Below are positions 14,620 to 62,986 of a DNA stretch of 64,000 nt, in pieces. The position numbers and the translations under genes are program-made. The stretch covers positions 1,984,001 through 2,048,000 of the forward strand of contig NZ_CP011390.1 in NCBI RefSeq assembly GCF_001644645.1. Direction: 5' to 3'. Within the stretch, counting starts at the first letter, position 1. Every line of letters begins with the position of its first letter. Source of the DNA: Flavisolibacter tropicus (GTDB taxonomy: Bacteria > Bacteroidota > Bacteroidia > Chitinophagales > Chitinophagaceae). Under the pieces are notes generated by a model. The model worked only from the letters and a program-made list of their open reading frames with translations, was not told the origin of the DNA and searched no databases.

Positions 14620-14654
14620 AAGCTGCAAGCTACTAGCTGCACGCTTCAAGCGGC
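14620..14654. repeat. Heptad tract A: five imperfect 7-bp repeats
   Basis: Five in-phase heptamers starting with AAGCTGC and AAGCTAC and continuing as A/T-x-GCT variants. A GC-rich CCCTCCC run follows. The same word family and the following CCCTCCC occur in the tract at 37187-37263. Confidence 0.75.
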
Positions 14655-14840
14655 CCCTCCCGGCCTCCCAAAAGGGGATAAGTACCTCGCAAATAACCAT
14701 AAGATGGAACAGCAATAAAATTGAAAAGAACTCCTTTAAGGAGAATGCTTTTGTGTTTTATGGTCTACGCCTTCGTAAGTTATCGATGACTACTTATTAA
14801 AGATTATAGCAATATCAGGCTGGGTCCTTATCGGGTTTTC

Positions 14841-14903
14841 TTCGATCTTGCTTCGATTCTTCTTCGATATTCGTTCGATACATAGAATCGAACAACTATC
14901 GAA
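14841..14903. repeat. 11-bp-phased TTCGAT array with two inverted copies
   Basis: TTCGAT starts at 14841, 14852, 14863 and 14874, exactly 11 bases apart. Inverted copies ATCGAA start at 14887 and 14898, again 11 apart. The spacing is about one helical turn, so all direct boxes face the same side of the DNA. It lies between the divergent ruvA and fabH genes, about 360 bases upstream of fabH. It could be an operator array for a multimeric regulator, or simply a different tandem repeat. Confidence 0.75.
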
Positions 14904-14979
14904 TCAGATAGGAACAAAATAGGATGTACCCCATCTCTTGGGCCTTGTTTTTTTGATTATTCCCTCCGCTACTCTCCTC

Positions 14980-15021
14980 CTTGAACATGGAATGTTGATT
15001 ATTGAGCATTCAACATTTCCT
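14980..15021. repeat. Heptad tract C1: six 7-bp units
   Basis: Units such as GTTGATT and ATTGAGC run in strict 7-base phase. It includes partly inverted words (TTGAACA and its near complement), so it can fold. Confidence 0.65.
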
Positions 15022-15032
15022 CTCTGCCCCTC

Positions 15033-15130
15033 CAAATTCCAAAACCCTAATTCCCAATTCCTCCCATCATCCTTCATTATTCCTTGTTCCTTGTTCAATA
15101 TTCTTCACCTTTCCTCCTTACCCTCTTTTC
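15033..15130. repeat. Heptad tract C2: fourteen 7-bp pyrimidine-rich units
   Basis: Fourteen heptamers in one phase over 98 bases. Two adjacent units are identical (CCTTGTT at 15082 and 15089); the rest drift (for example CAAATTC, CTAATTC, CATTATT), but twelve of fourteen begin with C. The strand bias is strong: nearly all G is on the minus strand. Confidence 0.75.
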
Positions 15131-15265
15131 AACTCTTAGCGCTCTGCCATTACCCTTTAAATAAGAGAAATAACCTAAATCTGGCACCCTTTTGCCGACA
15201 ATTCTCGTTAAACTCTGGACTGTGTACTATCTTAGCCCTCCTTTTTAAACTTCAGAATTGTAGCG

Positions 15266-16258
15266 ATGACTTCAAAGATTACTGCAGCCATTACCGCCGT
15301 TGGTGGTTATGTGCCAGAAACAAAATTGACAAATGCCGACTTAGAAAAAATGGTAGACACCAACGATGAATGGATCCGGACACGCACCGGGGTATCCGAA
15401 CGTCGTATTTTGAAAGGTGAAGGATTGGGATCTTCTGATTTGGCTGTACCAGCCATTAAACAGCTTTTAGAAAAAAGAGGGATCAGCGCTGAAGAAATTG
15501 AGTGTATCATTTGTTGCACGGTAACACCCGATATGGTGTTCCCGGCCACAGCTAATATCATTTCCGATAAACTAGGTGCTAAACATGCATTTGGCTTTGA
15601 CTTGGGTGCTGCCTGCTCTGGTTTCCTATATGGCTTAACTATGGGCGCTTCCCTGATCGAGAGCCGCCGTTATAAAAAAGTAGTGGTAGTAGGTGTAGAT
15701 AAAATGAGCGCTATAATTGATTATAGCGATCGTACTACCTGTATTCTATTTGGCGATGGCGCTGGAGCCGTATTACTGGAGCCTAATACAGAAGGCTTTG
15801 GCGTATTGGATTCTATTTTGAAAAGCGATGGTAGCGGCCGTCAGTTCCTGCATATGAAAGCAGGTGGTTCGGTTCGTCCGGCTACAGCTGAAACCGTTGC
15901 CAATAAAGAGCACTTTGTGTTCCAGGATGGTCAGCCAGTATTCAAAGCAGCCGTTAAGGGCATGGCCGATGTAAGCGCTGAATTGTTAGATCGTAACAAC
16001 CTAACCGGTAATGACATTGCTTGGTTGGTGCCTCACCAAGCTAACAAACGTATCATTGATGCTACTGCCGACCGTATGGGTCTTTCTCATGATAAGGTGA
16101 TGTTGAACATTCATAAATATGGTAATACCACAGCGGCTACTATTCCGCTTTGTTTGTGGGAATGGCGCCATGAATTAAACAAAGGCGACAACATTGTGTT
16201 AGCTGCCTTTGGTGGTGGTTTTACCTGGGGTGCTACCCTGGTAAAATGGGCGTATTAA
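15266..16258 (+). CDS. fabH: 3-oxoacyl-ACP synthase III (FabH, KAS III)
   Basis: 330 residues, normal for FabH. The catalytic triad is complete: Cys117 (GAACSGF), His257 (VPHQAN) and Asn287 (YGNTTAA). The N-terminal [17 protein letters not shown] and the C-terminal FGGGFTWGA are typical. It condenses a short acyl-CoA primer with malonyl-ACP to start fatty acid synthesis in the cytoplasm. The gene is monocistronic, with a long repeat-rich upstream region and a terminator downstream. rpmF and plsX, its frequent neighbours in other bacteria, are absent. It is one of possibly several KAS III genes in the organism. Confidence 0.95.
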
Positions 16259-16283
16259 TTAGCCTGATTACAAGATACTTTCA

Positions 16284-16312
16284 AAGAGCCCTGTCTTTTG
16301 ACAGGGCTTTTC
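16284..16312 (+). terminator. Rho-independent terminator after fabH
   Basis: A 9-bp stem AGCCCTGTC / GACAGGGCT with a TTTT loop, followed by a short T-run. Confidence 0.85.
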
Positions 16313-16389
16313 CATTGACATTAATTAATATATGATTTTCAAGCCTGCCCTTTCACTTATCTTCACCCCCTTTCTATTAGAATCCGACT

Positions 16390-17109
16390 ATGATCAACCA
16401 AACTAAACTGCTTATTGCCAAAAGACTGCTTCGTTTTTTAAAGTATATTGGTATCGCTGTTCTGTCCTTTGTCACATTTGTCCTTCTTTATTTACTAGCA
16501 GCCTATGTTTTATCAAGAATAAGTACAGAAAAGGAAGCTTCCTCTTCAAATGATGTGTCCATTTATATTCTTTCCAATGGTGTGCATACAGACCTGGTAA
16601 TGCCTTTGAAAACAGAGATTGTGGATTGGAGTAAAGAAATTCAGTTTGCACATACTACTGGCAAGGATACCGTCATGCAGTTTGTAGCATTGGGTTGGGG
16701 CGATAAAGGCTTTTACCTGGAAACGCCTACATGGGCCGACTTGAAGTTTAGCACGGCGTTCAAAGCTGCTTTTGCCTTAAGCACTTCTGCCCTACATGCT
16801 ACCTTTTATAAATCAATGAAAGAGGGAAAGGAATGTGTAAAGATTCCCATCTCCAAAGACCAATATACTCGCTTGGTAGCTTATATCCAGAACAGTTTTG
16901 ACAAAGATGCCAATGGGCATTACATAAATATTCCAACCAAGGCTGTATATGGAGCCAACGATGCTTTTTATGAAGCCAAGGGCAGTTATAGTTTATTTCA
17001 AACGTGTAATACCTGGGCTAATAAAGGATTGAAAAGTTGTGGTCAGAAAGCTGCTTTATGGACACCATTTGATACAGGTATATTTTATCATTATAACCAA
17101 AACAAATAG
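16390..17109 (+). CDS. DUF2459/TIGR02117 family protein, membrane-anchored
   Basis: 239 residues. One N-terminal hydrophobic helix (about 18-40) is followed by a soluble domain with the family landmarks SNGVHTDLVMP, GWGDKGFYLETPTWADL and a C-terminal SLFQTCNTWAN. The conserved Cys, His and Asn-Thr-Trp pattern resembles a cysteine hydrolase fold, but no activity is established. A start codon for a YiaAB membrane protein follows three bases after the stop, so the two genes are probably co-transcribed. Confidence 0.88.
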   Translation: MINQTKLLIAKRLLRFLKYIGIAVLSFVTFVLLYLLAAYVLSRISTEKEASSSNDVSIYILSNGVHTDLVMPLKTEIVDWSKEIQFAHTTGKDTVMQFVALGWGDKGFYLETPTWADLKFSTAFKAAFALSTSALHATFYKSMKEGKECVKIPISKDQYTRLVAYIQNSFDKDANGHYINIPTKAVYGANDAFYEAKGSYSLFQTCNTWANKGLKSCGQKAALWTPFDTGIFYHYNQNK

Positions 17110-17112
17110 TTT

Positions 17113-17523
17113 ATGACTCAAAAACCATCTGCTGCCTTTATTGGTGCTTCATGGGTAGCACTAGGTGCAGGCATGCTTGGCTACCTTGTTGGCCTTTGGC
17201 GTGCTGAGATGCAACTCAATGAAAAAGGCTATTACTTTACCATTCTCATGTTTGGCCTCTTTGCCGTTGTTTCACTTCAAAAAACAGTACGTGACCGATT
17301 AGATGGTATTCCAGTTACGGATATCTATTATGGTCTTAGCTGGTTTTCTACTCTCCTTTCTATTATTTTATTGGTAATAGGATTATGGAATGCCACTATA
17401 CTGCCTAGTGAGAAGGGCTTCTACGCCTTTGCCTTCTTGTTGGCATTATTTGGAGCTATCACCGTTCAAAAGAATACAAGAGACAGCCTGGGTAGTGTTA
17501 AAAAAGAGCAGCCCACAACCTAA
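17113..17523 (+). CDS. YiaA/YiaB family inner membrane protein
   Basis: 136 residues made of two copies of a two-helix unit. Each unit has a 'W...L.....GLW.A' helix, the 'EKGYYF' or 'EKGFYAF' turn, and a second helix ending 'QK..RD'. This is the YiaAB two-helix domain. Function is unknown. It sits in the inner membrane with four predicted helices. The start three bases after the DUF2459 stop implies translational coupling. Confidence 0.88.
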   Translation: MTQKPSAAFIGASWVALGAGMLGYLVGLWRAEMQLNEKGYYFTILMFGLFAVVSLQKTVRDRLDGIPVTDIYYGLSWFSTLLSIILLVIGLWNATILPSEKGFYAFAFLLALFGAITVQKNTRDSLGSVKKEQPTT

Positions 17524-20337: not shown

Positions 20338-20790
20338 CTATTTTAAAGCAATTGTGAAATTCGTTGTCTTGGGAGGTAAACATTTCTGATCATCACAGGT
20401 TTGAAACTCCAACTTCCCGGTTACAGCTGTCTTAGCGTTACCTTTCAGCTTCACCACTTGTACAAAATTTACTTTATTACTGTATTGGTTAGCAGAAACA
20501 TCCAGCTTGTCATCGCGGTATCTTTCCAGCTTACCTACTTCTTTTACTTTACCATCAAACACCAATAAAGGATTATTATTAAATGCAAAGCTGGTAGGCT
20601 GAGCAATAGCATCATCCGGTTGTGTTTGCGAATAAAGGTGCCAACCAGATTGTATAGTGGCGGTCATATGGATCTCATAAACCTTATCGCTGATCTTTTT
20701 GCTTGTAAATGCCCAGCTAACGGGATTTTGCGCAAAGGCTGCTATACTACCTACAAAGAACAAAGCCAGAACAAAAGCAAGCTTCTTCAT
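20338..20790 (-). CDS. Stand-alone periplasmic DsbD alpha-domain protein with CxxxxC pair
   Basis: 150 residues from the ATG at 20790 ([14 protein letters not shown]), giving a clean signal peptide ending AAFAQ. Upstream in-frame codons to 20886 run through the heptad repeat and are rejected. The mature domain matches the DsbD N-terminal domain and shares '[10 protein letters not shown]' and 'GW.LY' with the neighbouring DsbD. It keeps a cysteine pair in [12 protein letters not shown], the site where E. coli DsbD exchanges disulfides. It precedes dsbD by 70 bases on the same strand. It probably acts as the mobile electron-accepting module for DsbD, which is inference. Confidence 0.82.
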
Positions 20791-20845
20791 ACAAATGGAT
20801 TTAGAAAGCAAATTTCCTTGTTTAATTATTGCCGAGATGTTAAAA

Positions 20846-20908
20846 GATGAGTGAGCAGTAATGAGTGATGAGGAAAACTTACTCATTACTCATCATTCAT
20901 TATTCATA
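20846..20908. repeat. Heptad tract D: nine 7-bp units, inverted halves in one phase
   Basis: Four units of the GATGAGT type, a central AAAACTT, and four of the ACTCATT type. The right half is the inverse word of the left, and the 7-base phase is unbroken through the centre. It ends two bases from the purQ stop codon (minus strand) and can form a hairpin. Confidence 0.78.
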
Positions 20909-20909
20909 C

Positions 20910-21596
20910 TTACACTGCTGCAACCGCTTCTTCCAGCACTAACTGGAATAACAGTTTGAACACCTTGCGGCCGTCAGTATTGCCCAGCACAGAAGAGCAA
21001 GCTCTTTCTGGGTGCGGCATCATACCAAATACGTTACGGCCTTCATTGCAAATACCTGCAATATTGCGGGTAGAGCCATTATGATTGCTTTCAGGAGTAA
21101 CATTACCTTCAGCATCGCAGTAATGTAATAATACCTGCCCATTAGCTTCCAGCTTATTCAAGGTAGCATCATCTGCATAATAGCGGCCCTCTCCATGTGC
21201 AATAGGAATATTATAAACGTTCTCATCGGCATCTTTAACAAACACATTCTTGCAGATGTACTTTTGGTTGTTATTCCGTAGCAACACACCTGGAAGCAGA
21301 TGAGATTCACATAAAATCTGGAAACCGTTACAAACGCCTAATACTTTACCACCACGCTTAGCAAAATCGATTACGCTTTGCATGATAGGGCTAAAGCGGG
21401 CAATGGCACCTGTACGCAGGTAGTCGCCATAAGAAAAACCACCAGGTAGTACAATACAATCCTCCGTAGTAAACTGCGACAGATCGCTATCCTTATGCCA
21501 CAGCATTACACATTCCTGCTTTAGGTCATGCACTAAGGCATCATACATATCTCTATCGCAATTGGAACCGGGGAAAACAACAACACCGAATTTCAT
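20910..21596 (-). CDS. purQ: Phosphoribosylformylglycinamidine synthase subunit PurQ (glutaminase)
   Basis: 228 residues, normal for the separate small subunit. The class I glutamine amidotransferase triad is complete: Cys89 (GVCNGFQ), His195 and Glu197 (MMPHPERA). The oxyanion region [11 protein letters not shown] is present. It releases ammonia from glutamine for PurL in step four of purine synthesis. PurL and PurS are not in the window. It sits 48 bases after a membrane-protein gene on the same strand and may be co-transcribed with it. Confidence 0.96.
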
Positions 21597-26384: not shown

Positions 26385-27169
26385 CCTCTGTTATCTACTA
26401 TACCCTTGGCAGCATTGCGCTGATTTCCCTACTGACCTACCTTTTGCAGGAGCGCTTCATCTTTCGTCCGGAAAAGCTCCACCCCAACTTCCAGTTTAAG
26501 TATGATGTTCCGTTTAAGGAGATCAATTTTGATACTGACCCTGGTGTACGCATCAATGGACTTCACTTCTTTCGAGAGAAACCCAAAGGCCTAATTCTCT
26601 ATTTCCACGGCAATACCCGTAGCATTAAAGGCTGGGCCAAGTATGCCCGCGACTTTTATCGCTATGACTATGACGTGGTATTGGTAGACTACCGTGGGTT
26701 TGGCAAAAGCACGGGCAAACGTAACGAGCAAGAGATGTTAGAAGATATGCAGTATGTGTACGAGAGCTTAGCCAAGGAATACGGAGAACAGCATCTTATA
26801 GTTTATGGCCGCAGCTTAGGTAGTGGCTTTGCTGCCAAGGTAGCTTCAGACAACAAGCCACGCTATCTTATTCTGGATGCACCTTATTATAATTTTCGCC
26901 AGGTAGTAGAGCGCTTTCTTCCCTTCATCCCGCTTAATTATGTATTACGCTATCACTTGCGTATTGATAAATGGATAAAGAGAGTAAACTGCCATGTGTA
27001 TATTCTTCATGGCACAAAGGATTGGCTGATCCCTATCCGCCATAGCGAAGACCTGCAACGTCTGATGCCTCGCCGCATTACACTAATCCGCATTCATGGT
27101 GGCGGGCATAACAACCTTCCAAAGTTTCCAGAATACCACAATTTCATCAGGGATATTTTGAAGGAATGA
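26381..27169 (+). CDS. Membrane-anchored alpha/beta hydrolase (paralogue of 37467-38276)
   Basis: 262 residues. The frame has no ATG before residue 118 and an upstream stop at 26366, so the TTG at 26381 is the only reasonable start. An N-terminal helix is followed by 'ERFIFRPEKL', the oxyanion-side LYFHGNTRS, and the nucleophile elbow YGRSLGSG (Ser near residue 146). The acid is probably in HGTKDWLIP and the histidine in GGGHNNL. It resembles the BEM46/ABHD13-like group. The substrate is unknown. A paralogue at 37467-38276 shares the order of motifs and HGN, YGRS and KHNNL/GHNNL. It follows kup closely. Confidence 0.87.
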   Translation: MPSVIYYTLGSIALISLLTYLLQERFIFRPEKLHPNFQFKYDVPFKEINFDTDPGVRINGLHFFREKPKGLILYFHGNTRSIKGWAKYARDFYRYDYDVVLVDYRGFGKSTGKRNEQEMLEDMQYVYESLAKEYGEQHLIVYGRSLGSGFAAKVASDNKPRYLILDAPYYNFRQVVERFLPFIPLNYVLRYHLRIDKWIKRVNCHVYILHGTKDWLIPIRHSEDLQRLMPRRITLIRIHGGGHNNLPKFPEYHNFIRDILKE

Positions 27170-27174
27170 GGAGG

Positions 27175-27251
27175 GTGAGTAGTGAATGGTGAGTGGTGAG
27201 TATTCGTGAGACGTTAAAGGTAAGGCTACGAGCTATGAGCCATGAGCCGAG
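27175..27251. repeat. Heptad tract E: eleven 7-bp units, three word families in one phase
   Basis: It begins with four GTGAGTA-type units, passes through GACGTTA and AAGGTAA, and ends with AGCTATG-type units. The phase never slips. It starts five bases after the hydrolase stop codon. Confidence 0.8.
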
Positions 27252-27316
27252 AGAAATAATACAGGAGAAACGAACTTCGATCTAGATAACACGAGAATGT
27301 TATTCTACCGCCCACC

Positions 27317-29232: not shown

Positions 29233-29592
29233 ATGAAAGCCTCAATCCTTACATGCCTACTGATCTTCACAACCATTATAACACAAGCCCAAAAGCCAAG
29301 AGATGGCTCCTATACCTTCGCCATAGCATTCGCTGAATGGGGTGGCAAGTCGCAGGGAAATACCTGTACGGTTATTGTTAAGGGTAGCCAGGTTAAAGTG
29401 ATCAACAACGGTACGGGAACACTGAAACAATTTAAAGGTGAAGTAATGGATGAAGGCATACTGATGATACATCGTACGGGAAGATGGATCATTGGACACG
29501 ATGCTAAAGACAAATATGCCAAACAGATCGGTGGCTGTAGTGATGGCCCCGCAGAGATCGACTTTAAAAACAAAAGGTTTTGGATCTGCTAG
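29233..29592 (+). CDS. Small secreted protein of unknown function
   Basis: 119 residues with a signal peptide ending ITQAQ. The mature part of about 100 residues is beta-rich and contains two cysteines besides the C-terminal one (NTCTV, GGCSDG, WIC-end). It begins with 'RDGSYTFAIAFAEWGGK'. I do not recognise a family. A heptad repeat tract begins four bases after its stop codon. Confidence 0.65.
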   Translation: MKASILTCLLIFTTIITQAQKPRDGSYTFAIAFAEWGGKSQGNTCTVIVKGSQVKVINNGTGTLKQFKGEVMDEGILMIHRTGRWIIGHDAKDKYAKQIGGCSDGPAEIDFKNKRFWIC

Positions 29593-29595
29593 ATA

Positions 29596-29665
29596 GAGGG
29601 CAGTTGACAGTTAACAGTTGGCCGTTGACAGTACGCCACTGTCCTCTATCAACTATCCTCCGTCA
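29596..29665. repeat. Heptad tract F: ten 7-bp units
   Basis: GTTGACA, GTTAACA and close variants are followed, in the same phase, by inverse-type words such as ACTGTCC and ACTATCC. It begins four bases after the stop codon of the small secreted protein gene and can form a hairpin. Confidence 0.8.
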
Positions 29666-37186: not shown

Positions 37187-37263
37187 AAGCTGCAAGCTTT
37201 ACGCTACACGCTGCACGCGGTAAACAACCCATTGTGAGACGTAAAACGTCAAACGTGAAAGGC
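37187..37263. repeat. Heptad tract G: eleven 7-bp units, two word families in one phase
   Basis: AAGCTGC/ACGCTAC-type units give way to AAAACGT/CAAACGT-type units without loss of phase. A short GC-rich hairpin (CCTCCCC, GAA, GGGGAGG) follows. It begins eight bases after the TPR lipoprotein stop. Tract A at 14620 uses the same first word. Confidence 0.8.
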
Positions 37264-37346
37264 CCCTCCCCGAAGGGGAGGAGACCCAATGCACAGAGCC
37301 CCGCTTTGCAACGAGGTATTTCTTTACCTATTCATTCAACTAATTG

Positions 37347-37374
37347 AAAAGCACTCCACCAAGGAAGTGCTTTT
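37347..37374 (+). terminator. Rho-independent terminator
   Basis: Stem AAAAGCACT / AGTGCTTTT with an 10-base loop, followed by GTTTT. It probably ends the TPR lipoprotein transcript beyond tract G. Confidence 0.75.
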
Positions 37375-37394
37375 GTTTTATAAAGAGGTTTCTC

Positions 37395-37429
37395 CTGGCT
37401 TACAGCGTGCAGCGTACAGCGTGCAGCTT
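37395..37429. repeat. Heptad tract H: five 7-bp units
   Basis: Alternating ACAGCGT and GCAGCGT, the least diverged of all the tracts. It lies 38 bases before the hydrolase start codon at 37467, in its probable leader. Confidence 0.78.
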
Positions 37430-37466
37430 TTCTCTCCTATCGACTTTTCCTACATTTACAACAAGC

Positions 37467-38276
37467 ATGCAGGATAAAGCGAAAAGAAGAATCAAGCGTA
37501 CACTGATTGGCTTAGTGACCTTTTATATTACCAGTGGTGTAGTATTGTACCTAATTCAGGACCTGCTGTTCTTTCATCCTAAAAAACTACCCGCTGATTA
37601 CCAATATCAGTTTACTGATCCATTTACGGAGCTAAATATTACTGTTGATGACCGCAACCTGAATGTGGTGCAGTTCAAGGCACAGACGTCCAATCGAAAA
37701 GGCATTGTACTTTATTTCCATGGCAATATGCGCAATATAGAACGCTATGCGGACCAGGCGCCCCTGTTTACCAAAAGCGGTTATGAGGTGTGGATAGTAG
37801 ACTATCCCGGCTTTGGTAAGAGTACTGGCAAGCGTACAGAGCAAGCAATGTATAGCGATGCACAGCTACTCTACCGTATGGCAGCAAAAGAAGTGGCAGA
37901 CAGTAGCATTATAATCTATGGGCGATCTATTGGAACTGGCGTGGCTGCTTACTTAGCTGCCCATGTGCCTTGCCAGCAATTGATACTGGAAACGCCCTAC
38001 TATAGCATTGAGGCCATGGCTAAACATTATGCGCCTATATTCCCGGTAAAGTCGCTCATGAACTACCGCTTCCCTGTATACGAGTATTTACAAAAAGTAA
38101 CAGCCCCTGTTACCATCCTGCATGGAACGCAGGATGAGATCATACCTTATGGGCAGGCACAACAATTAGCTGCCATTAAAGGCGTACAACTGATCACCAT
38201 TCCCAGGGGAAAGCACAATAATTTATCGGGCTATGCGCAGTTTCAGCGGGTATTAGCCGGCCTACTTACTCATTAG
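37467..38276 (+). CDS. Membrane-anchored alpha/beta hydrolase (paralogue of 26381-27169)
   Basis: 269 residues from the ATG at 37467 (MQDKAKRRIKR). An earlier ATG at 37344 would translate repeat tract H and is rejected. A basic N-terminus and one membrane helix (about 12-34) precede 'FFHPKKLP'. Motifs: LYFHGNMRN, nucleophile elbow YGRSIGTG, probable acid in HGTQDEIIP, and histidine in GKHNNLSG. It resembles the BEM46/ABHD13-like group and its paralogue 11 kb away. The last 11 bases overlap, tail to tail, with the LD-carboxypeptidase gene. Confidence 0.87.
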   Translation: MQDKAKRRIKRTLIGLVTFYITSGVVLYLIQDLLFFHPKKLPADYQYQFTDPFTELNITVDDRNLNVVQFKAQTSNRKGIVLYFHGNMRNIERYADQAPLFTKSGYEVWIVDYPGFGKSTGKRTEQAMYSDAQLLYRMAAKEVADSSIIIYGRSIGTGVAAYLAAHVPCQQLILETPYYSIEAMAKHYAPIFPVKSLMNYRFPVYEYLQKVTAPVTILHGTQDEIIPYGQAQQLAAIKGVQLITIPRGKHNNLSGYAQFQRVLAGLLTH

Positions 38277-39388: not shown

Positions 39389-39416
39389 GGCTTTGCACGT
39401 TTCACCTTTCACAACC
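39389..39416. repeat. Heptad tract M: four 7-bp units upstream of metG
   Basis: GGCTTTG is followed by CACGTTT, CACCTTT and CACAACC in strict phase. It ends 30 bases before the metG start codon, so it would lie in the leader or promoter. Confidence 0.55.
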
Positions 39417-39446: not shown

Positions 39447-41657
39447 ATGACAACACAAGAGACGACTATACCCGGCTCCCCATCAGAAACGGGAGGTAAC
39501 CAACCGAAGCGTTATTTAATTACATCTGCCCTTCCGTATGCCAACGGGCAAAAACACATTGGTCACCTGGCCGGTGCGTATATACCTGCCGATATATATG
39601 TACGTTACCTACGTGCGCAAAAAAGAGATGTAGTTTTTGTTTGTGGTAGTGATGAGCATGGAACAGCCATTCCTATCCAGGCCATGAAAGAAGGTACTAC
39701 ACCACAGGCCATTATAGACAAGTACCATGTGATCATGAAGGAGAACTTTGATGACCTGTCTATTTCATTTGATATCTATGATCGCACTTCTAACCCTATA
39801 CATCATGAAACAGCGCAGGAGTTCTTTACCTACCTGAACGATCGTGGTGAGCTGGAAATCAAAGAATCGGAGCAGTATTTTGATGAAGAGGCACAGACGT
39901 TCCTGGCCGACCGCTATATCAAAGGAACTTGTCCAAACTGTGGATCTGACCGTGCCTTTGGCGATCAGTGTGAAACCTGTGGTACGTCGTTAAGTCCAGA
40001 TGAACTGATCAACCCAGTGAGTACCCTTAGCGGTAAACCACCGGTAAAAAAAGCCACCAAGCACTGGTACCTTCCACTAAACAAGCATGAAGACTGGCTG
40101 CGCAACTGGATATTAAATGAGCATCAGAACGACTGGAAGGCTAATGTGTTGGGACAATGCAAAAGCTGGATAGATGCTGGCTTGCAGCCCCGAGCTGTTA
40201 CACGCGACCTGGATTGGGGTGTAAAAGTGCCGCTACCTGATGCAGAAGGCAAGGTATTGTATGTGTGGTTTGATGCGCCTATTGGGTACATTTCTGCCAC
40301 CAAGCAATGGGCTATCAATAATGATAAAGACTGGAAACCTTACTGGCTGGATAAAGACACCAAACTGGTGCACTTTATTGGCAAGGACAATATTGTGTTC
40401 CACTGTATCATCTTCCCGGTAATGCTAAAGCTGCATGACTTTATTGTGCCGGCCAACGTTCCCGCCAATGAGTTCATGAACCTGGAAGGTGATAAAATGA
40501 GCACCAGCCGTAATTGGAAGCTGGATATGCAGGATTACATCGACGACTTTATTAAGAAGGAAAACGGTGGTCCGCAAATGGCTGATGCACTGCGTTATTA
40601 CTTAGCTACTATCCTTCCAGAAACAAAGGATAGCGAGTTTACGTGGAAAGGATTCCAGGATGCGGTAAACAGTGAGCTGGTAGCCATATTTGCCAACTAC
40701 TTTAATCGCACGTTTGTGCTAATGCATAAACTAACCGGCGGGAAAGTACCTAAGTTTCATAACGATATTGCTGATGCGAAAGACCAGGATTTGATGGAAG
40801 AAATTCGCAAGGCAAAGACCACAGTAGAGAACTTACTGGAGGAATATAAATTCCGTGATGCCTTGTTTGAAGTGATTGACCTGGCCAGAAAAGGCAACAA
40901 ATACATGCAGGAAAAAGAGCCTTGGATCAAGGCTAAGCAAACAACTGCTGATGGCGTGATAGTGCCTGAAATGCAGGCGCAGATTGACAACTGCATGCAC
41001 ATTTGCCTACAGTTGTGTGCTAACCTGGCTATCCTGATCAACCCCTTCCTTCCTAACACGGCTAAGAAAATGTGTCATTTGATGAAGGTGGTAGATAAGA
41101 TGCTCGATTGGGAAAATGCAGGTTCATTGAAATTGTTAAGTGTTGGATACTCACTACGTGCTCCTGAATTATTGTTCCGCAAGATTGAGGATGCAGAAGT
41201 GCAGTACCAGGTTGATAAATTAAAAGCAGGATTAGAAAAAGCAAAAATGGAGAATAGTCAGAGTAGTCCACAGTCGACGATCGACAGTCAACAGCCGGCA
41301 GAAGCAAATCAGAAATCAGAAATCATCAAATCAGAAATTCAATATGATGATTTTGATAAGTTGGATCTGCGGATAGGAACAGTTATCAGCGCTGAAAAAG
41401 TAGCAAAGGCCGATAAGTTATTGAAGCTGCAGGTTGACCTGGGTTTTGAGCAGCGCACCATTGTTTCAGGTATTGCGCAACACTTTACACCGGAATCACT
41501 GGTTAACAAACAGGTGATAGTAGTGGCTAACCTGGCACCACGCAAAATGCGCGGCATTGAAAGCCAGGGAATGATCTTAACAGCCGAACAGCCGGATGGC
41601 AAATTGATACTGGTAAATCCAGATGCAGCCACTATTAATGGTTCTAATGTGCGCTAG
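39447..41657 (+). CDS. metG: Methionyl-tRNA synthetase with C-terminal tRNA-binding domain
   Basis: 736 residues. The class I signatures are HIGH at residues 37-40 and KMSTS at 350-354. A zinc knuckle uses Cys162, Cys165, Cys175 and Cys178. The helical anticodon-binding domain runs to about residue 600. The C-terminal EMAP/Trbp-like domain (FDKLDLRIGTVISAEKV onward) dimerises and binds tRNA. Between them, residues 602-632 form a Ser/Gln-rich linker encoded by a heptad repeat (41258-41327). The enzyme charges tRNA-Met in the cytoplasm. It is monocistronic with a strong terminator. Confidence 0.96.
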   Translation: MTTQETTIPGSPSETGGNQPKRYLITSALPYANGQKHIGHLAGAYIPADIYVRYLRAQKRDVVFVCGSDEHGTAIPIQAMKEGTTPQAIIDKYHVIMKENFDDLSISFDIYDRTSNPIHHETAQEFFTYLNDRGELEIKESEQYFDEEAQTFLADRYIKGTCPNCGSDRAFGDQCETCGTSLSPDELINPVSTLSGKPPVKKATKHWYLPLNKHEDWLRNWILNEHQNDWKANVLGQCKSWIDAGLQPRAVTRDLDWGVKVPLPDAEGKVLYVWFDAPIGYISATKQWAINNDKDWKPYWLDKDTKLVHFIGKDNIVFHCIIFPVMLKLHDFIVPANVPANEFMNLEGDKMSTSRNWKLDMQDYIDDFIKKENGGPQMADALRYYLATILPETKDSEFTWKGFQDAVNSELVAIFANYFNRTFVLMHKLTGGKVPKFHNDIADAKDQDLMEEIRKAKTTVENLLEEYKFRDALFEVIDLARKGNKYMQEKEPWIKAKQTTADGVIVPEMQAQIDNCMHICLQLCANLAILINPFLPNTAKKMCHLMKVVDKMLDWENAGSLKLLSVGYSLRAPELLFRKIEDAEVQYQVDKLKAGLEKAKMENSQSSPQSTIDSQQPAEANQKSEIIKSEIQYDDFDKLDLRIGTVISAEKVAKADKLLKLQVDLGFEQRTIVSGIAQHFTPESLVNKQVIVVANLAPRKMRGIESQGMILTAEQPDGKLILVNPDAATINGSNVR
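41258..41327. repeat. Heptad tract I: ten 7-bp units inside metG
   Basis: AGTCCAC/AGTCGAC-type units pass in the same phase into AATCAGA units, then slip near 41328. Three heptads make seven codons, so the coding frame stays open. It encodes the low-complexity linker before the tRNA-binding domain. Confidence 0.75.
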
Positions 41658-49024: not shown

Positions 49025-49026
49025 AA

Positions 49027-53729: not shown

Positions 53730-55100
53730 TTATAGATGGTGATCTTCTTCTTCCTTGAAAATATCAATCAAACTGTTCTTAAACTTACCCCAGAAAGATG
53801 ACATTCCCTTTCTTTCAATGCCGCCACCAGACACTACGTGAATAGGGCTAGATTCCACTTCAACCAATACTTCGCTTTTTAGCGTTTCAGGCACCTCTAC
53901 GCGCTTGAACTCACTTTCAAACTGTTTGCGATTGTGTTCAAAATCATCATACCCTTTCAAGATCAAGCCTAAGCAGGTAGAATAAGTAGGCTTGGCTAGT
54001 TCTTCAATATGCCCAGCTGCTAAATGCTCCGTAGGCAAGCCAATGCGAGCATTTAAGCCGGTAACATATTCTGTCAATTGAATTAAGTGCTTCAATTGAG
54101 AACCACCGCCAGTTAGGATGATTCCACCATTCAACATTCTATTATCTAATCCAACCTGTTTTAAATGATAAGTAACAAAATCCATGATCTCGCTCATGCG
54201 CGCCTGGATAATGTTTGCCAAATTCTTAACACTAATTTCTTTTGCAGGCATACCTCTTAAACCAGGAATTGTGATATAGGCGTTGGCTTTAGCTTCGTTT
54301 GCTAATGCACTACCAAACTGAACTTTCATTTGCTCAGCCTGAGTTTTCAATACACCCAATCCTGTTTTAATATCATTAGTAATATTCTCTCCAGCAAAAG
54401 GAATAACAGCTGTATGTTTCAAAATACCTTCATAGAATACAGCCAAGTCTGTAGTACCGCCACCGATATCAACAATAGCAACGCCTGCTTCTAAATCCTC
54501 TTGAGCCATTACCGCAGCAGAAGAAGCCAAAGGTTGCAACACCAAATCCTTTGTGATCAATCCAGAACGCTCTACGGAGCGATTGATGTTTCGGATGGCA
54601 TTTTTATCACCTGTAATGATGTGAAAGTTGGCGCCCACCTTAACACCACCGTACCCAATCGGATCAGCGATATTCTGGAAGTTGTCAACTGTAAATTCCT
54701 GAGGAATGACATCAATAATTTGATCACCGGCAGGAATGTAGGTTTTGTATTGATCAGCGATCAACTGGTCAATCTCTTTTTGAGAAATTTCGTTTTCTGT
54801 TTCCTGGCGTACAATGTCGCCACGTGTTTGCAGACTCTTAATGTGATGCCCAGCAATACCTACGTATACTTCATTAATTTCCAAGTTTGGATTTGAAGCA
54901 TAGCAGTTATCCAAGGCTTGCTGAATTGCCTTGATCGTTTCATCGATGTTTAACACTTGCCCGTGTTTAACACCGTTAGAGTTGGCACGGCCAAAACCTA
55001 AAATCTCCAGTTTACCGTACTCATTCTTCCGTCCGGCAATTACTGCGATTTTAGTTGTTCCAATGTCAAGCCCCACAATAATTGGTTGCTCGTTGTTCAT
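53730..55100 (-). CDS. ftsA: Cell division protein FtsA
   Basis: 456 residues of the actin/Hsp70 fold. Phosphate-1 motif VGLDIGTTKIAVIAG, phosphate-2 VAIVDIGGGTTDLAVF, adenosine motif GGIILTGGGSQL. The 1C subdomain lies around residues 84-165. The C-terminal amphipathic helix (SFWGKFKNSLIDIFKEEE) binds the inner membrane. It links FtsZ to the membrane and signals to septal peptidoglycan synthesis. It lies between ftsQ (111 bases) and ftsZ (127 bases) on the same strand. Confidence 0.96.
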   Translation of the reverse strand: MNNEQPIIVGLDIGTTKIAVIAGRKNEYGKLEILGFGRANSNGVKHGQVLNIDETIKAIQQALDNCYASNPNLEINEVYVGIAGHHIKSLQTRGDIVRQETENEISQKEIDQLIADQYKTYIPAGDQIIDVIPQEFTVDNFQNIADPIGYGGVKVGANFHIITGDKNAIRNINRSVERSGLITKDLVLQPLASSAAVMAQEDLEAGVAIVDIGGGTTDLAVFYEGILKHTAVIPFAGENITNDIKTGLGVLKTQAEQMKVQFGSALANEAKANAYITIPGLRGMPAKEISVKNLANIIQARMSEIMDFVTYHLKQVGLDNRMLNGGIILTGGGSQLKHLIQLTEYVTGLNARIGLPTEHLAAGHIEELAKPTYSTCLGLILKGYDDFEHNRKQFESEFKRVEVPETLKSEVLVEVESSPIHVVSGGGIERKGMSSFWGKFKNSLIDIFKEEEDHHL

Positions 55101-55101
55101 G

Positions 55102-55136
55102 TTCTATGTTGTTTTTAGTTGTTTGTCGTTGTTGAA
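55102..55136. repeat. Weak heptad tract L upstream of ftsA
   Basis: TTGTTTT, TAGTTGT and TTGTCGT run in a 7-base phase. It immediately precedes the ftsA start codon. Confidence 0.4.
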
Positions 55137-58863: not shown

Positions 58864-60177
58864 TTATACAACTAGTGCCTCCTCAGCATCTTCTACATCA
58901 ACCTCTTGTTCTTCATTAGCCTTTTGAGCAGCTGCATTTTCCTGTCTTTCCTTTTTACCTTCTAACTGTTCCACATTTCGTGCTACGCTAAGGATAATAC
59001 CGATAGACAAACAGGTAAATAAGAAACTACTACCTCCCATACTAACCAGAGGAAGTGTTACCCCGGTAATTGGAAATAAATTCACGTTTACCATCATATT
59101 TGTCAAGGCCTGCAATACTAATGTAAAGCTTAACCCTAGTGCGAGAAAAGCACCAAACGCATATGGACAGCGTTTGTACAATCTAATACTTCTATAAAGG
59201 AAAACGAGATATATAAATATGATTAAAGCTCCACCAACCAATCCATATTCCTCAATAATTGTTGAATAAATTGAGTCAGAGTATGGGTGAGGTGTAAAAT
59301 TTCTTTGTGTGCTATTTCCTGGTCCCATTCCCAAAAAGCCACCATTGGCAATAGCGATCTTCATTTGATTCACGTGGTAAGTACTTTGCAGATCATCATC
59401 TTTAGTACCATACACAAACCCTTCCACTCTACTTATCCAAGTATCAACACGAGCTGTTAGTTTTGACGATTTTTCTTTTTTCACTACTGCATCTTCATCA
59501 ACCGACTTATGCTTAATTACAGCCGCTAATATTAATGCTGACACTGGAATTAATGCGGCCCCAATAACCAGCAGCAAATGTTTACCATTTACACGACCGA
59601 TAAACAACAACAGCATGCAACTAACACCTAGCAATAACGCTGTAGATAAATTGGCTGGGGCAATTAACAAGCAAGTAACTGCTACTGGAATTATTACTGG
59701 CAAAAAGCCTTTTTTAAAATCCTTGATGTGATTCTGACGGCGGCTTAACATCCGAGCCAAAAACATAAATAACGCCAACTTTGCCAAGTCGGACGTTTGC
59801 ATAGTCATATTAACTATTGGCAAACGAATCCAGCGGCTACCCTCATTTAATGTTACACCAAAAAACAGTGTATATATTAATAAAGGAATAGAGAACAGGA
59901 ATAACACCTTTGCCACTTTTGCGTAAATAGTATAATTTACTCTGTGTGCAAAGTAAATAACACAAAGTCCTACGGCAATAAATGCTGTTTGTTTGAAAAG
60001 GTATACTTCGGTATTCCCTTTATACATTTTATACGCCAACGAACCCGTAGCACTATATACTACCAAAAGAGAAATCACTACCAGCAGGAACACGGCAGCC
60101 CAGATCACTTTGTCACCCTTTGTTTTGTGACGCAACCCTTTAATATGGTTTTGTATGTTTAGTGGTTCGGACAACAT
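58864..60177 (-). CDS. ftsW: Lipid II polymerase/division protein FtsW (SEDS family)
   Basis: 437 residues with about ten membrane helices. SEDS landmarks: LLVVYSATGSLAYK near the start, DLAKLALFMFLARML, and the late NLFPITGVTLPLVSMGGSSFL. The loop with 'YHVNQMKIAIANGGFLGMGPGNSTQRN' is also conserved. The acidic C-terminal tail is cytoplasmic. It polymerises septal glycan with its partner class B PBP, which is not in the window. murG follows ten bases later. Confidence 0.95.
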   Translation of the reverse strand: MLSEPLNIQNHIKGLRHKTKGDKVIWAAVFLLVVISLLVVYSATGSLAYKMYKGNTEVYLFKQTAFIAVGLCVIYFAHRVNYTIYAKVAKVLFLFSIPLLIYTLFFGVTLNEGSRWIRLPIVNMTMQTSDLAKLALFMFLARMLSRRQNHIKDFKKGFLPVIIPVAVTCLLIAPANLSTALLLGVSCMLLLFIGRVNGKHLLLVIGAALIPVSALILAAVIKHKSVDEDAVVKKEKSSKLTARVDTWISRVEGFVYGTKDDDLQSTYHVNQMKIAIANGGFLGMGPGNSTQRNFTPHPYSDSIYSTIIEEYGLVGGALIIFIYLVFLYRSIRLYKRCPYAFGAFLALGLSFTLVLQALTNMMVNVNLFPITGVTLPLVSMGGSSFLFTCLSIGIILSVARNVEQLEGKKERQENAAAQKANEEQEVDVEDAEEALVV

Positions 60178-60228
60178 TTTTCTCTTATAGTTAGTTTAAC
60201 CCCAATTTCATTTAGCACCGAAAGTTGA

Positions 60229-61566
60229 TTATAAGCTCATTACAGCTTCTTTGAACTGCTTTCCACGATCTTCATAGTTTTTAAAAAGATCGAAAGAAGC
60301 ACATGCAGGACTTAACAAAACTGCATCTCCTACTGTTGACAATTCATAAGCAGTTTGTACGGCATTTTGAGCACTTGCCGTATCAATCACTTTTACTACT
60401 CCATCAAAAGCTGCATGAATCTTTTGATTATCCAAACCCATGCATACAATCGCTTTCACTTTCTCTTCCACCAGCTCCTTGATCAGAGAATAATCATTTC
60501 CTTTATCAACACCACCCAATATCAACACTGTAGGTTTTGTCATACTTTCCAATGCATACCAAGTAGAATTCACATTAGTAGCTTTGCTATCATTAACAAA
60601 CTCAACACCTCTAACCATAGCAACGCTTTCCATACGATGTTCCAGACTCTGGAAAGTTTGTACGGCCTCGCGGATCTGATTTTTCCGGATATCCATAGTG
60701 GCTCCGGCTACACATGCTGCCATAGTGTTGTATTGATTATGTTTACCTTTTAGTGCAAAATCGTATACACTCATAGATTGCTGTTCGCCATTAACGTTTA
60801 CGTTCAATTCATCGTTCTGGATGTATCCGCCTTCTTTTACTACTTGCTTCATACTAATCGGTGTTTGAATGGAGTTTATTATATAATGTGAAAAACTTTC
60901 TGTAATTATTTTATCATCTAGATTATAGATGAAATAGTCTTCTGAAGTTTGGTTCATCGCAATTCGAAACTTAGCCGCGATATAGTTTTCAAACTTGTAA
61001 TCATATCTGTCCAAGTGATCCTCTGTTATATTTAGTAAAACAGCGACATCTGGGCGAAATGTTACAATATCATCCAACTGAAACGAACTGATTTCCGCTA
61101 CATACAAAGGCTTCGGATCTTCGGCAATCTGCTTGGCAAATGAATACCCTATATTGCCCACCAATGCGCATTCCAAACCTGCTTCTTTACATATATGATA
61201 TGTTAGTGCTGTAGTTGTAGACTTACCATTGCTCCCTGTAATAGCAATAATCTTACTATCACCTTTGTATCGATAAGCCAATTCTATTTCAGATACAACC
61301 TGTATACCATTAGCTCTTATCTTTTTCACCCACTCATTCTTTTCAGGAATGCCTGGGCTCTTAACTACTTCGTCAGCATTTAAAATAAAAGTCGCATCCA
61401 CTTCCTTTTCAGCAAATGGAATTTGCGCTGCTTCTAATTCATTGCGATAACCTACTTTCAAAGAACCTTCGTCAAACAAAAAGACGTCATAGCCCTTTTG
61501 CTTTGCGAGTAATGCTGCACCTACGCCGCTTTCTCCTCCTCCTAATATGACTAAACGTTTACTCAT
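60229..61566 (-). CDS. murD: UDP-N-acetylmuramoylalanine-D-glutamate ligase
   Basis: 445 residues. N-terminal VILGGGESGVGAALLA, the Mur ATP loop ITGSNGKSTTTAL, central NITEDHLDRYD, and C-terminal NDSKATNVNSTWYAL, all typical of MurD. It adds D-glutamate to UDP-MurNAc-L-Ala in the cytoplasm. It lies between mraY (73 bases) and ftsW (51 bases). Confidence 0.96.
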   Translation of the reverse strand: MSKRLVILGGGESGVGAALLAKQKGYDVFLFDEGSLKVGYRNELEAAQIPFAEKEVDATFILNADEVVKSPGIPEKNEWVKKIRANGIQVVSEIELAYRYKGDSKIIAITGSNGKSTTTALTYHICKEAGLECALVGNIGYSFAKQIAEDPKPLYVAEISSFQLDDIVTFRPDVAVLLNITEDHLDRYDYKFENYIAAKFRIAMNQTSEDYFIYNLDDKIITESFSHYIINSIQTPISMKQVVKEGGYIQNDELNVNVNGEQQSMSVYDFALKGKHNQYNTMAACVAGATMDIRKNQIREAVQTFQSLEHRMESVAMVRGVEFVNDSKATNVNSTWYALESMTKPTVLILGGVDKGNDYSLIKELVEEKVKAIVCMGLDNQKIHAAFDGVVKVIDTASAQNAVQTAYELSTVGDAVLLSPACASFDLFKNYEDRGKQFKEAVMSL

Positions 61567-61639
61567 GGTTTCAGATACAGAAAAAATGGTTTTCCACAGT
61601 ACGTCTTGGTTGAATTGGTTGGTCTTTCAATAAATGCTT

Positions 61640-62917
61640 TTATCTCAACTTCAAGGTTACAATGGAGAATACCACACATAAAATGGTAACTATCCAGAAC
61701 CGTGTAACAATCTTTGATTCATGATACCCTAACTTCTGATAATGGTGATGTAAAGGACTCATCAGGAAGATTCGCTTTCCTTCACCATACTTCTTTTTGG
61801 TGTATTTGAAATAACCAACCTGCAACATCACACTCAAATTCTCAACAAGGAATACACCACAGAAAATAGGAATCAATAACTCTTTATGAACAATGATGGC
61901 TAATGCTGCGATTACGCCACCCAACATTAAACTTCCGGTATCGCCCATGAATACCTGTGCCGGATATGAGTTATACCATAAAAACCCAATACAAGCCCCA
62001 ATCATTGCACCAATGAATATGGCCAACTCAGCCAAATTGGGTATATACATTACATTGAGGTAGTCGGCCAAAATGAAATTACCGCTTGCATAGGCAAAGA
62101 TTCCTAAGCACACTCCTATGAGTGCCGATGTACCAGTGGTCAAACCATCCAAGCCATCTGTAATATTTGAACCATTAGATACCGCAGTGATAATAAATAT
62201 TACAATAAGAATATAGAGCACCCAAGAGTATGCACGCAACGACTCAGGCAGCAGCTTTGAGTAATTGAACTCATGATTCTTTACAAAAGGAATCGTTGTG
62301 ATAGGATCTTTTGCTTCTACAAAGTATTTAGTACGATTATTTACTTCACGGGCAATAACTGTAGTGTCGCCTGCTTTAGGAACACCCTGGTATTCTCTCC
62401 AGGTTTTAACACTCGGGCTGAAGTATAAAGTTGCTCCTACAATAATGCCAAGCATCACTTGACCAAAGATCTTAGCCTTTCCAGCCAAGCCATCATCATC
62501 GCCTTTTTTATAAGCCACACCTTTTTCCTGAGCCCTACGCTTTGCTCTGATCTTTAAGTAATCGTCTAAGAAGCCAATGGCCCCTAACCACACCGTACTT
62601 AAGATCATTAAACGGATATATACTTTTTCCAAGTTGGCTAACAACAATGTTGGAATCAAGATCGCCAGGATAATGATCAAGCCACCCATTGTAGGGGTAC
62701 CTTTTTTAGTATGTTCTCCAGCAAGGCCCAAATCGCGAACACTTTCCCCAATCTGCTTTCTCTTCAAAAAATTAATGATACGTTTCCCAACCAGTGTTGA
62801 AACAATCAGCGATAGAATAACCGCTAGTAACACCCGGAAGGTGATGAACTGAAATAATGAGCTACCCGGGAAACGGATGCCTTCAGTTCTAAACCATTCA
62901 AATAAGTGATATAACAT
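61640..62917 (-). CDS. mraY: Phospho-N-acetylmuramoyl-pentapeptide transferase MraY, with internal insertion
   Basis: 425 residues, about 65 longer than E. coli MraY. It has about ten membrane helices, the GTPTMGG motif, the aspartates in GFLDDYLK and NITDGLDGL, and the late HHHYQK. The extra length is a hydrophilic insertion between the two aspartate motifs (about residues 180-230, containing [16 protein letters not shown]), as I recall from other Bacteroidota MraY. It makes lipid I in the inner membrane. murE lies directly upstream, without murF. Confidence 0.95.
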
Positions 62918-62930
62918 GTTATTCTATTTT

Positions 62931-62986
62931 CGGTTCGTGATATTAGATTTTCGGGTGTTTTTCATTTCACGTTTCGTTTTCTCTTT
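62931..62986. repeat. Heptad-like tract J between murE and mraY
   Basis: 7-periodic units such as TTCACGT and TTCGTTT, and two copies of ATTTTCGG 21 bases apart (three heptads). It lies in the 92-base gap before mraY. Confidence 0.5.

What the first reader, a model, noticed from the sequence alone, without database searches (positions are those of the whole stretch)
14620..62986. Dispersed imperfect 7-bp tandem repeats (STRR-like) across the window
At least eight clear loci (14620, 14980/15033, 20846, 27175, 29596, 37187, 37395, 41258) and several weaker ones (39389, 53657, 55102, 62931) carry tracts where the word drifts but the 7-base period does not. Each locus has its own word, and word families change within a tract without phase loss. 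Length-preserving divergence alone would keep the phase, but abrupt family switches and inversions in phase suggest copying in 7-base steps. Heptameric STRR repeats are known in filamentous cyanobacteria (Mazel and colleagues); I know of no described counterpart in Bacteroidota.
Basis: partly seen in the sequence, partly recalled or inferred. Interest (0 to 1): 0.8.

Follow-up and report, generated by a model that had tools for sequence, protein, structure and literature searches.

The report
Seven-base repeats filling permissive bacterial DNA
A bacterium of the phylum Bacteroidota and its relatives carry many imperfect seven-base repeats in stretches of DNA that are free to change, even inside the gene for an essential enzyme, which points to a copying process with a built-in seven-base step whose cause is still unknown.

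Summary
In 1.26 Mb sampled from this probable Chitinophagaceae genome, 200 kb of intergenic DNA holds 192 period-7 tracts, against 0-26 at periods 5, 6, 8, 9, 10 and 13 and 0-5 in shuffles; period 11 gives 49, from another array family. 'No counterpart in Bacteroidota' is also wrong: heptamer arrays are described there (MacGregor 2015) and widely in prokaryotes (SPADE 2018).

New here: unit similarity falls steadily with unit distance. At orthologous sites the tract comes and goes and its word changes. In the methionyl-tRNA synthetase linker 11 of 17 congeners carry a period-7 segment, other periods from 4 to 13 give 0 or 1, and codon shuffles 0.05 on average, although coding DNA should favour multiples of three. 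In congener G013, 20 of 50 tract regions are long hairpins, against 4 of 100 tract-free spacers.

Best reading: a mutational process duplicates DNA in 7-base steps where sites tolerate it, followed by drift and block copying. Why seven is unexplained. New variant of a known kind.

The parts
14618..14651 (.). period-7 tract, word family GCAAGCT/GCACGCT, in the divergent spacer between a ruvA gene and a fabH-like gene
   Evidence: lag-7 score 10.8; genes by Pfam; 29 matches of this family's pattern in the 1.26-Mb sample, reversed-pattern control 0
14838..14879 (.). period-11 array (TTCGAT words) in the same spacer; a sister array type, not period 7
   Evidence: TRF; lag-11 arrays elsewhere in the genome
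14979..15017 (-). period-7 block B (NNNTCAA units), read on the minus strand; lies in ORF 14938-15369, which I take to be false
   Evidence: score 10.4; block B unit order recurs
15031..15103 (-). period-7 block A (GAACAAG/GAATAAT) followed by a GGAATTGGGAATTAGGG block, minus strand; in the same ORF taken to be false
   Evidence: score 22.6; listed beside 41 other block A matches
20846..20911 (.). heptad hairpin (TGAGTAA words) at the junction of a GATase_5 (purQ-like) gene and a DsbD_N gene; overlaps the 5' end of ORF 20338-20886 as called
   Evidence: score 16.4; inverted-repeat score 14, 20847-20900; at the orthologous junction Paracnuella (L089) has a tract with other words and L090, L091, L092, L095 none
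27162..27253 (.). period-7 tract, GTGAGTG words then GCTATGAGCC words, at and after the end of an alpha/beta hydrolase gene
   Evidence: score 19.9; no tract at the orthologous junction in L090, L091, L092 and L095
29595..29667 (.). heptad hairpin (CAGTTGA words) between convergent genes
   Evidence: score 14.5; inverted-repeat score 11, 29592-29650
37187..37222 (.). period-7 tract, GCAAGCT/GCACGCT family
   Evidence: score 12.6
37234..37262 (.). period-7 tract, AACGTGA/AACGTCA family
   Evidence: score 11.3
37398..37429 (.). period-7 tract, GTGCAGC words, near the 5' end of ORF 37344-38276 (probably upstream of the true start: relatives align from residue 42-61)
   Evidence: score 13.9; tblastn starts
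39391..39412 (.). weak period-7 tract upstream of metG
   Evidence: score 8.4
41265..41338 (+). coding period-7 tract in the metG linker (residues about 607-630), CAGTCAA words then AAATCAG words
   Evidence: score 18.7 for 41265-41329, TRF to 41338; linker segments in 11 of 17 congeners; DNA of 17 species
39447..41657 (+). metG, host gene of the coding tract
   Evidence: Pfam tRNA-synt_1g, Anticodon_3, tRNA_bind
55083..55130 (.). period-7 tract (TTGTTNN words) across the 5' end of the ftsA ORF (53730-55100, minus)
   Evidence: score 13.5; Pfam FtsA

Best explanation
The tracts are most likely the product of a mutational process, not a gene-control element. SHOWN: in this genus a step of seven bases is strongly preferred over neighbouring steps in spacers and in one free protein linker; neighbouring units resemble each other most and similarity falls with unit distance; tract presence and words differ between species at the same site; in the own genome blocks of units recur at many loci in a preferred order and strand; in one congener many tracts are inverted pairs forming hairpins. 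INFERRED: during replication or repair the growing strand slips back by seven bases on short microhomology and copies one more unit; ordinary point mutations then make the word drift while the period stays; arrays, being alike, pair with other arrays or with the opposite strand, so template switching or gene conversion spreads blocks between loci and makes the inverted arms. The arrays persist because the sites tolerate them; no function for the arrays is needed. What fixes the step at seven is not known; the one proposal in print that I met is a polymerase footprint of about seven bases (Mrazek 2007, as told in PMC4679880 and PMC4692102).
For: Period-7 excess. Lag identity in 64 long tracts: 0.638, 0.534, 0.467, 0.403, 0.355, 0.319 at lags 7 to 42; off-phase values 0.23-0.34; same trend in 25 tracts of G013 and 14 of other genomes. 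MetG linker, 17 of the 18 genomes of the genus: lag-7 segment in 11 at threshold 9.5 and 9 at threshold 11; lag 8 in 1 and 0; lags 4-6 and 9-13 in 0; codon shuffles give 0.05 and 0.01 species on average, at most 1. The 27.7 kb of MetG upstream of the linker has 1 lag-7 segment (3 at lag 9, 4 at lag 12). In 5 of 17 species the array adjoins coding DNA of the form AAATCNGAAAT (K-S-E-I or alike), which carries AAAT twice at a distance of 7, and the words resemble it: own, G003, G007, more loosely G010 and G016 (read by eye). FtsA|FtsZ, 200 bp upstream of FtsZ: lag-7 segment in 6 of 18 species, all other lags 4-13 in 0. PurQ|DsbD_N junction: own genome and Paracnuella with different words, four relatives with none. 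Unit-to-unit mismatches are 45% transitions against 33% in the whole sequence. 7-base gaps between dispersed copies 63, against 46 (6) and 26 (8). No orientation to genes (35 sense, 34 antisense, 15 mixed of 84 in co-directional spacers) and flat position along spacers.
Against: In-place slippage does not explain a genome-wide vocabulary with recurring unit order and block order; the spreading step is inferred only. The decay could partly come from joining unlike uniform blocks. One of the 11 MetG cases (G004) is an A-rich run that also scores at lag 8. The FtsZ linker, also long, has 0 lag-7 segments in 18 species but 5 at lag 6 and 3 at lag 9, so not every linker is filled. Gap counts come from 625 overlapping alignments, and one- and two-base gaps (1244 and 472) far outnumber 7-base gaps. 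The FtsA|FtsZ recurrence is, by my estimate from the own genome's density, not above what spacers of the genus would give. Arrays of period 8, 11 and 22 coexist, so seven is not the only step in this genome. I found no sister strain close enough to catch a single new unit.
Confidence: 0.55

Rival explanations
1. The tracts are remains of several families of small mobile elements (hairpin or composite cassettes, REPIN- or MITE-like) whose bodies happen to be built of heptads, moved by a transposase acting in trans.
For: 140 of 673 intergenic regions share repeats at E<=1e-10, with a pair 99% identical over 115 bp; preferred block order and strand; one period-11 element has a core found in 13 places of the sample; hairpins in 20 of 50 tract regions of G013 against 4 of 100 tract-free spacers.
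Against: No common end or target duplication that I could see in 42 listed block A matches, whose flanks vary (by eye). The own genome has 3 divergent Y1_Tnp matches; the 2 loci read (3.2 kb each) hold no period-7 tract at threshold 11, and its one RVT_1 match has an internal stop. Different words at the same coding linker are not expected from element insertion. A 301-base composite spacer has no match in 72,556 plasmid records; a 621-base one has one 35-base match there and none in 50,697 phage records (BLAST's low-complexity filter was on).
Confidence: 0.22
2. The arrays are functional: binding sites for a protein with a 7-base register, RNA regulators, or transcription terminators, kept by selection.
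For: Hairpins in a subset; convergent spacers somewhat enriched (27 of 127 regions with a tract, against 56 of 442 co-directional and 23 of 152 divergent); hairpin arms pair better in register (0.85) than slid by 7 (0.76-0.79) in G013, and 0.82 against 0.69-0.71 in the own genome.
Against: Folding z-scores of 100 tract windows do not differ from 100 tract-free spacers (means -1.17 and -1.30); no gene orientation or position preference; presence and words not conserved at orthologous sites; no Rfam family in six 20-kb stretches, window not included. Register 0 was picked as best, which inflates its pairing.
Confidence: 0.12
3. A dedicated templated writer (reverse transcriptase or telomerase-like enzyme) adds heptads from an RNA template, so that one genome shares words.
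For: Shared vocabulary within the genome and change of words between species.
Against: One RVT_1 match in the genome, with an internal stop, and 12 of 18 genomes of the genus have none; 14 or more word families would need many templates.
Confidence: 0.03
4. Chance, low complexity or assembly artefact.
For: TRF scores of single window tracts are modest; outside the genus the excess is small.
Against: 192 tracts against 0 in a Markov shuffle at lag 7; single-contig, 100% complete genome; same period in independent assemblies of the genus.
Confidence: 0.01

Closest known systems
Heptanucleotide 'long simple sequence repeats' of prokaryotes (Mrazek et al. 2007; SPADE survey, PMC6344855)
   Same: Period seven, intergenic, widespread, function unknown; slippage with a polymerase footprint of 7 proposed (passages in PMC4679880 and PMC4692102; the Mrazek paper itself not read).
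   Different: As I understand them those surveys count perfect or near-perfect arrays; here units drift (lag-7 identity about 0.64 in long tracts) and the same site carries different words in different species. Coding arrays are said to favour multiples of three; the MetG linker does not.
TAACTGA direct repeats of Beggiatoaceae, Cyanobacteria and five Bacteroidetes (MacGregor 2015, PMC4679880)
   Same: Heptamer direct repeats in intergenic DNA, mixed with other heptamers in some Bacteroidetes; indels mostly in steps of 7 between two Cyanothece strains.
   Different: Single fixed word, in its main genome mostly just upstream of start codons in one orientation; here TAACTGA is the consensus of 0 of 353 tract pieces (3 within one mismatch) and there is no orientation to genes.
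GGGAATC / GGGGA(C/T)T repeats of Xanthomonas and Nostoc (PMC4692102)
   Same: Spread over the genome, mostly non-coding; many Xanthomonas sites are convergent pairs able to form stem-loops, like the heptad hairpins of G013.
   Different: One G-rich word able to form quadruplexes; here many words and drift.
STRR sequences of filamentous cyanobacteria (Mazel and colleagues; recalled, plus one sentence on Calothrix in PMC4692102)
   Same: Tandem heptanucleotides, dispersed.
   Different: Few fixed words in cyanobacteria; not so here.
REPINs with RAYT transposases (PMC3116915, search listing only; details recalled)
   Same: Short dispersed palindromes in spacers.
   Different: No heptad arms; no linked transposase found in the two loci read here.

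Membership tests
Heptanucleotide long simple sequence repeats (Mrazek 2007 kind) | Excess of period 7 over neighbouring periods | tested here: met
   in congener G013 52 tracts at lag 7 against 26 at lag 8 and 16 at lag 9
Heptanucleotide long simple sequence repeats (Mrazek 2007 kind) | Mainly intergenic | tested here: met
   192 tracts in 0.2 Mb intergenic against 25 in 1.06 Mb coding at threshold 11
Heptanucleotide long simple sequence repeats (Mrazek 2007 kind) | Perfect or near-perfect tandem units (recalled) | tested here: not met
   lag-7 identity 0.638 in 64 long tracts
STRR of cyanobacteria | Tandem unit of seven bases | tested here: met
STRR of cyanobacteria | Few fixed words in many copies (recalled) | tested here: not met
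   43 word clusters, 140 distinct consensus words in 353 pieces
TAACTGA repeats (MacGregor 2015) | The word TAACTGA | tested here: not met
   0 of 353 pieces exact, 3 within one mismatch
TAACTGA repeats (MacGregor 2015) | Placed upstream of start codons in forward orientation | tested here: not met
   flat position; 35 sense, 34 antisense, 15 mixed of 84 by purine strand
GGGAATC repeats (Xanthomonas) | Word GGGAATC | tested here: not met
   1 of 353 exact, 11 within one mismatch
GGGAATC repeats (Xanthomonas) | Frequent convergent pairs able to form stem-loops | tested here: inconclusive
   Met in congener G013: 20 of 50 tract regions score >=14, 0 of 50 shuffles, 4 of 100 tract-free spacers. 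Own genome: 13 of 164 against 4 of 100 tract-free, little difference
REPIN / RAYT elements | REP-type Y1 transposase gene next to a repeat | tested here: inconclusive
   3 divergent Y1_Tnp matches in the genome; no tract in the 2 loci read; third locus not read
MITE-like mobile elements | Sharp ends with target-site duplication | tested here: inconclusive
   none seen by eye in 42 listed block A matches; no close sister strain to show empty sites

The most novel reading that the evidence does not exclude
This genus (and, given the known prokaryote-wide excess of heptamers, perhaps many bacteria) has a replication or repair activity with an intrinsic seven-base register that keeps writing new units into DNA free of constraint, overriding even the three-base bias of coding DNA, and that also writes them onto the opposite strand to give heptad hairpins.
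Probability: 0.3. Interest if true: 0.85.

Novelty: new variant of a known kind. Interest (0 to 1): 0.6.

Why it matters
That heptamers are the commonest tandem repeats in many prokaryotes was reported in 2007 (as told in PMC4679880) and stated again in 2018 with 'no clear clue' to function (PMC6344855). This genus turns the question into an experiment: the same spacer or linker can be read in 17 or 18 species, with the tract present or absent and with different words. The MetG linker separates mutation from selection, because selection there should favour steps of three and yet the step is seven.

Tried and rejected
Rejected or negative: folding energy as a mark of the tracts; orientation or position relative to genes; association with Y1 transposases or reverse transcriptases; plasmid or phage origin; Rfam families in six stretches without the window; hairpins as a general feature of the own genome's tracts (13 of 164 against 4 of 100 tract-free); FtsZ linker as a second coding site (0 of 18 at lag 7); strict phase keeping across word changes (only partial).

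Shared vocabulary across Bacteroidota is not claimed. For it: a 22-base pattern of block A with up to 2 mismatches occurs in 16 of 395 genomes (own included, with 160 copies) while the reversed control hits 4 genomes; k-mer sharing with the own tracts is above the reversed control in G013 and G143. Against it: it is below the reversed control in G316, and word sharing is weak (G013 37% against 17% reversed and 23% shuffled; mixed set 66% against 55% and 39%, biased because some loci in it had been chosen by pattern).

Limits of controls: reversed-pattern controls for A7, G7 and M7 are not clean (20, 27 and 18 hits), because those patterns read backwards are near-rotations of the same words. 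Two runs of N that scored as tracts were dropped from the counts of L089-L168. Gene calls are crude (longest ORFs of 100 codons or more), so some tracts counted as coding lie in false ORFs. The 18th genome of the genus, G011, had no full MetG and is not in the count of 17.
Full report
WHAT WAS CHECKED. The window is bases 1984001-2048000 of a single-contig genome of 5,940,863 bases. A PurQ-type protein of the window has its best named hits in Paracnuella aquatica, a Chitinophagaceae isolate and Terrimonas (75-76%), so the organism is very probably a member of Chitinophagaceae. I took 60 evenly spaced 20-kb stretches of the same genome and, with the window, analysed 1.264 Mb, of which 199.8 kb is intergenic by a crude ORF caller.

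THE PERIOD IS REAL. Intergenic identity at lag 7 is 0.298 against 0.269 in letter shuffles (z 28), with harmonics at 14 and 21; lags 9 and 10 are at background; lags 3, 4, 6, 8, 11 and 22 are also raised (z 8 to 18). A log-odds scan at threshold 11 finds 192 tracts at lag 7, 116 at its harmonic 14, and 0 to 26 at lags 5, 6, 8, 9, 10 and 13; lag 11 gives 49, from a separate array family, and period-8 arrays also exist; Markov shuffles give 0 to 5. In congener G013 (430 kb) lag 7 gives 52, lag 8 26, lag 9 16; in two genomes of another family 6 and 3 in 200 kb each; in 80 loci from named Bacteroidota genomes 35 at lag 7, 31 at lag 6, 24 at lag 9. So the strong excess is shown for this genus, not for the phylum.

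WORDS ARE SHARED, NOT PRIVATE. Consensus words of 353 tract pieces fall into 43 clusters; the top 14 cover 84%, against 56-57% in three runs with letters shuffled inside words. Of 44 runs of NNNTCAA units, 24 begin TGT-TGC and 4 more TAT-TGC; 5 share a second order, ATT-ACN-AYT-ATC. Different blocks lie mostly on the same strand and in a preferred order: A and B on the same strand in 40 of 40 pairs within 300 bp, A first in 33; C before B in 19 of 20; other pairs are looser, e.g. P7 with K8 6 same and 3 opposite. Arrays of period 8 (GGTTGACA), 11 (TACAGAAGAGG) and about 22 (ATACGGAGTAACC...) are woven in. 140 of 673 intergenic regions share repeats at E<=1e-10. So many spacers are a patchwork of dispersed blocks.

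HOW UNITS RELATE. In 64 long tracts the identity of units falls from 0.638 at one step to 0.319 at six steps, where it meets the off-phase values (0.23-0.34); G013 and a mixed set from named genomes show the same fall. Stepwise copying of a neighbour with later mutation would give this, though joining of unlike blocks adds to it. Mismatches between neighbours are 45% transitions against 33% over all sequence.

ORTHOLOGOUS SITES. (1) PurQ|DsbD_N: the window has a hairpin of TGAGTAA words, Paracnuella a tract of GCTACAA words, and L090, L091, L092 and L095 have none. (2) FtsA|FtsZ, 200 bp upstream of FtsZ in 18 genomes of the genus: period-7 segments in 6 (G001, G003, G006, G007, G011, G013), several as inverted pairs, with different words although G006, G011 and G013 share an AGTT core; every other lag from 4 to 13 gives 0 of 18. 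By my estimate this is about what the general density would give. (3) MetG: the linker between the anticodon-binding and C-terminal tRNA-binding domains has a period-7 segment in 11 of 17 species at threshold 9.5 (9 at threshold 11), lag 8 in 1 (0), all others in 0; shuffling codons inside each linker gives 0.05 (0.01) species on average and never more than 1 in 200 runs. One of the 11, G004, is an A-rich run. The gene upstream of the linker (27,654 bases in all) has 1 at lag 7, 3 at lag 9 and 4 at lag 12. Words differ: AAATCAG in the own genome, AAATCNC in G003, GAAATCT in G007, ACATCAG in G010 and G016, GCAACNG in G013, and others. In five species the array touches codons for K-S-E-I or alike, AAATCNGAAAT, which carry AAAT twice at a distance of seven; that looks like the seed (read by eye). 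Coding DNA should favour steps of three, so I read the step of seven as a property of the mutation, not of selection. A second linker, that of FtsZ, is a clean negative (0 of 18 at lag 7; 5 segments at lag 6 and 3 at lag 9); its length is 888-936 bp in 16 of 18, so it may simply be less free to change.

HAIRPINS. In congener G013, 20 of 50 tract regions hold an ungapped inverted repeat of score 14 or more, against 0 of 50 shuffles and 4 of 100 tract-free spacers. In the own genome it is 6 of 60 sampled or 13 of 164 in all, against 4 of 100 tract-free spacers: hardly more than background. The arms share the word rather than an exact copy: pairing is 0.85 in register and 0.76-0.79 when slid by seven in G013, 0.82 and 0.69-0.71 in the own genome; register 0 was chosen as best, so part of that difference is bias. 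Slipped pairing of arms by one unit with extension would make both arms grow in sevens; this is inference.

FUNCTION. I found nothing that points to one: no orientation to genes, flat position in spacers, mild excess in convergent spacers, no unusual folding energy, no Rfam match in 120 kb that did not include the window, no substantial plasmid or phage match for two composite queries, with BLAST's low-complexity filter on.

WHAT IS KNOWN. MacGregor 2015 (PMC4679880; abstract, two sections and passages seen) reports TAACTGA and other heptamer arrays in Beggiatoaceae, Cyanobacteria and five Bacteroidetes, and relates the finding of Mrazek 2007 that heptamers are the most abundant long repeats in most genomes, with slippage and a polymerase contact of seven bases as the proposed cause. 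[quoted passage not shown] PMC4692102 (Discussion and passages) describes GGGAATC arrays in Xanthomonas, often as convergent pairs. PMC12699852 (passages) finds short tandem repeats not enriched in bacteria on average, with Bacteroidota among the exceptions of high density; it does not contain the words heptamer or heptanucleotide. Nine library searches (three of them empty) listed no paper that I could recognise, by title and start of abstract, as reporting drifting heptads at orthologous sites with changing words or a seven-base step inside a coding linker; the library holds open-licence papers only.

VERDICT. Real, striking, a new variant of a known and unexplained kind.

Noticed in passing
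L063:15420-15560, L036, L041, L068 and others (13 places in the sample): A dispersed element with a nearly invariant core (GCAGTTGGTACGGACTTACCTACAG) followed by 11-base units TACAGANNAGG; one pair of copies is 99% identical over 115 bp. It may be a small RNA gene or the end of a mobile element.
   Followed up: partly
L014, L044, L045, L047, L050, L056 (e.g. L045:10118-10308): A second dispersed family with a period of about 22 bases (ATACGGAGTAACC...CATGAAGGGACAGAGG).
   Followed up: no
genome 3.3-3.8 Mb (L041-L045): Tract bases per stretch are highest near the minimum of the cumulative GC skew and low around 0.2-1.0 Mb; dnaA lies elsewhere (1935409-1936797, minus strand). No test of the trend was made.
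   Followed up: partly
L243 and L256 (genome near 557 kb and 5.39 Mb): Two near-identical segments (98.7-99.6%) with a divergent Y1 transposase gene and an IS110-like transposase gene (recalled label), the second part inverted between them.
   Followed up: no
window 14838-14879: Period-11 array of TTCGAT words in the ruvA-fabH spacer; arrays of similar words (TTCGAGACTTG) occur in L046, L037 and L028, with inverted partners.
   Followed up: no
L214 (G131 C8, from its first base): About 18 perfect copies of GAACATT at a contig end, a likely fresh expansion in another Bacteroidota family.
   Followed up: no
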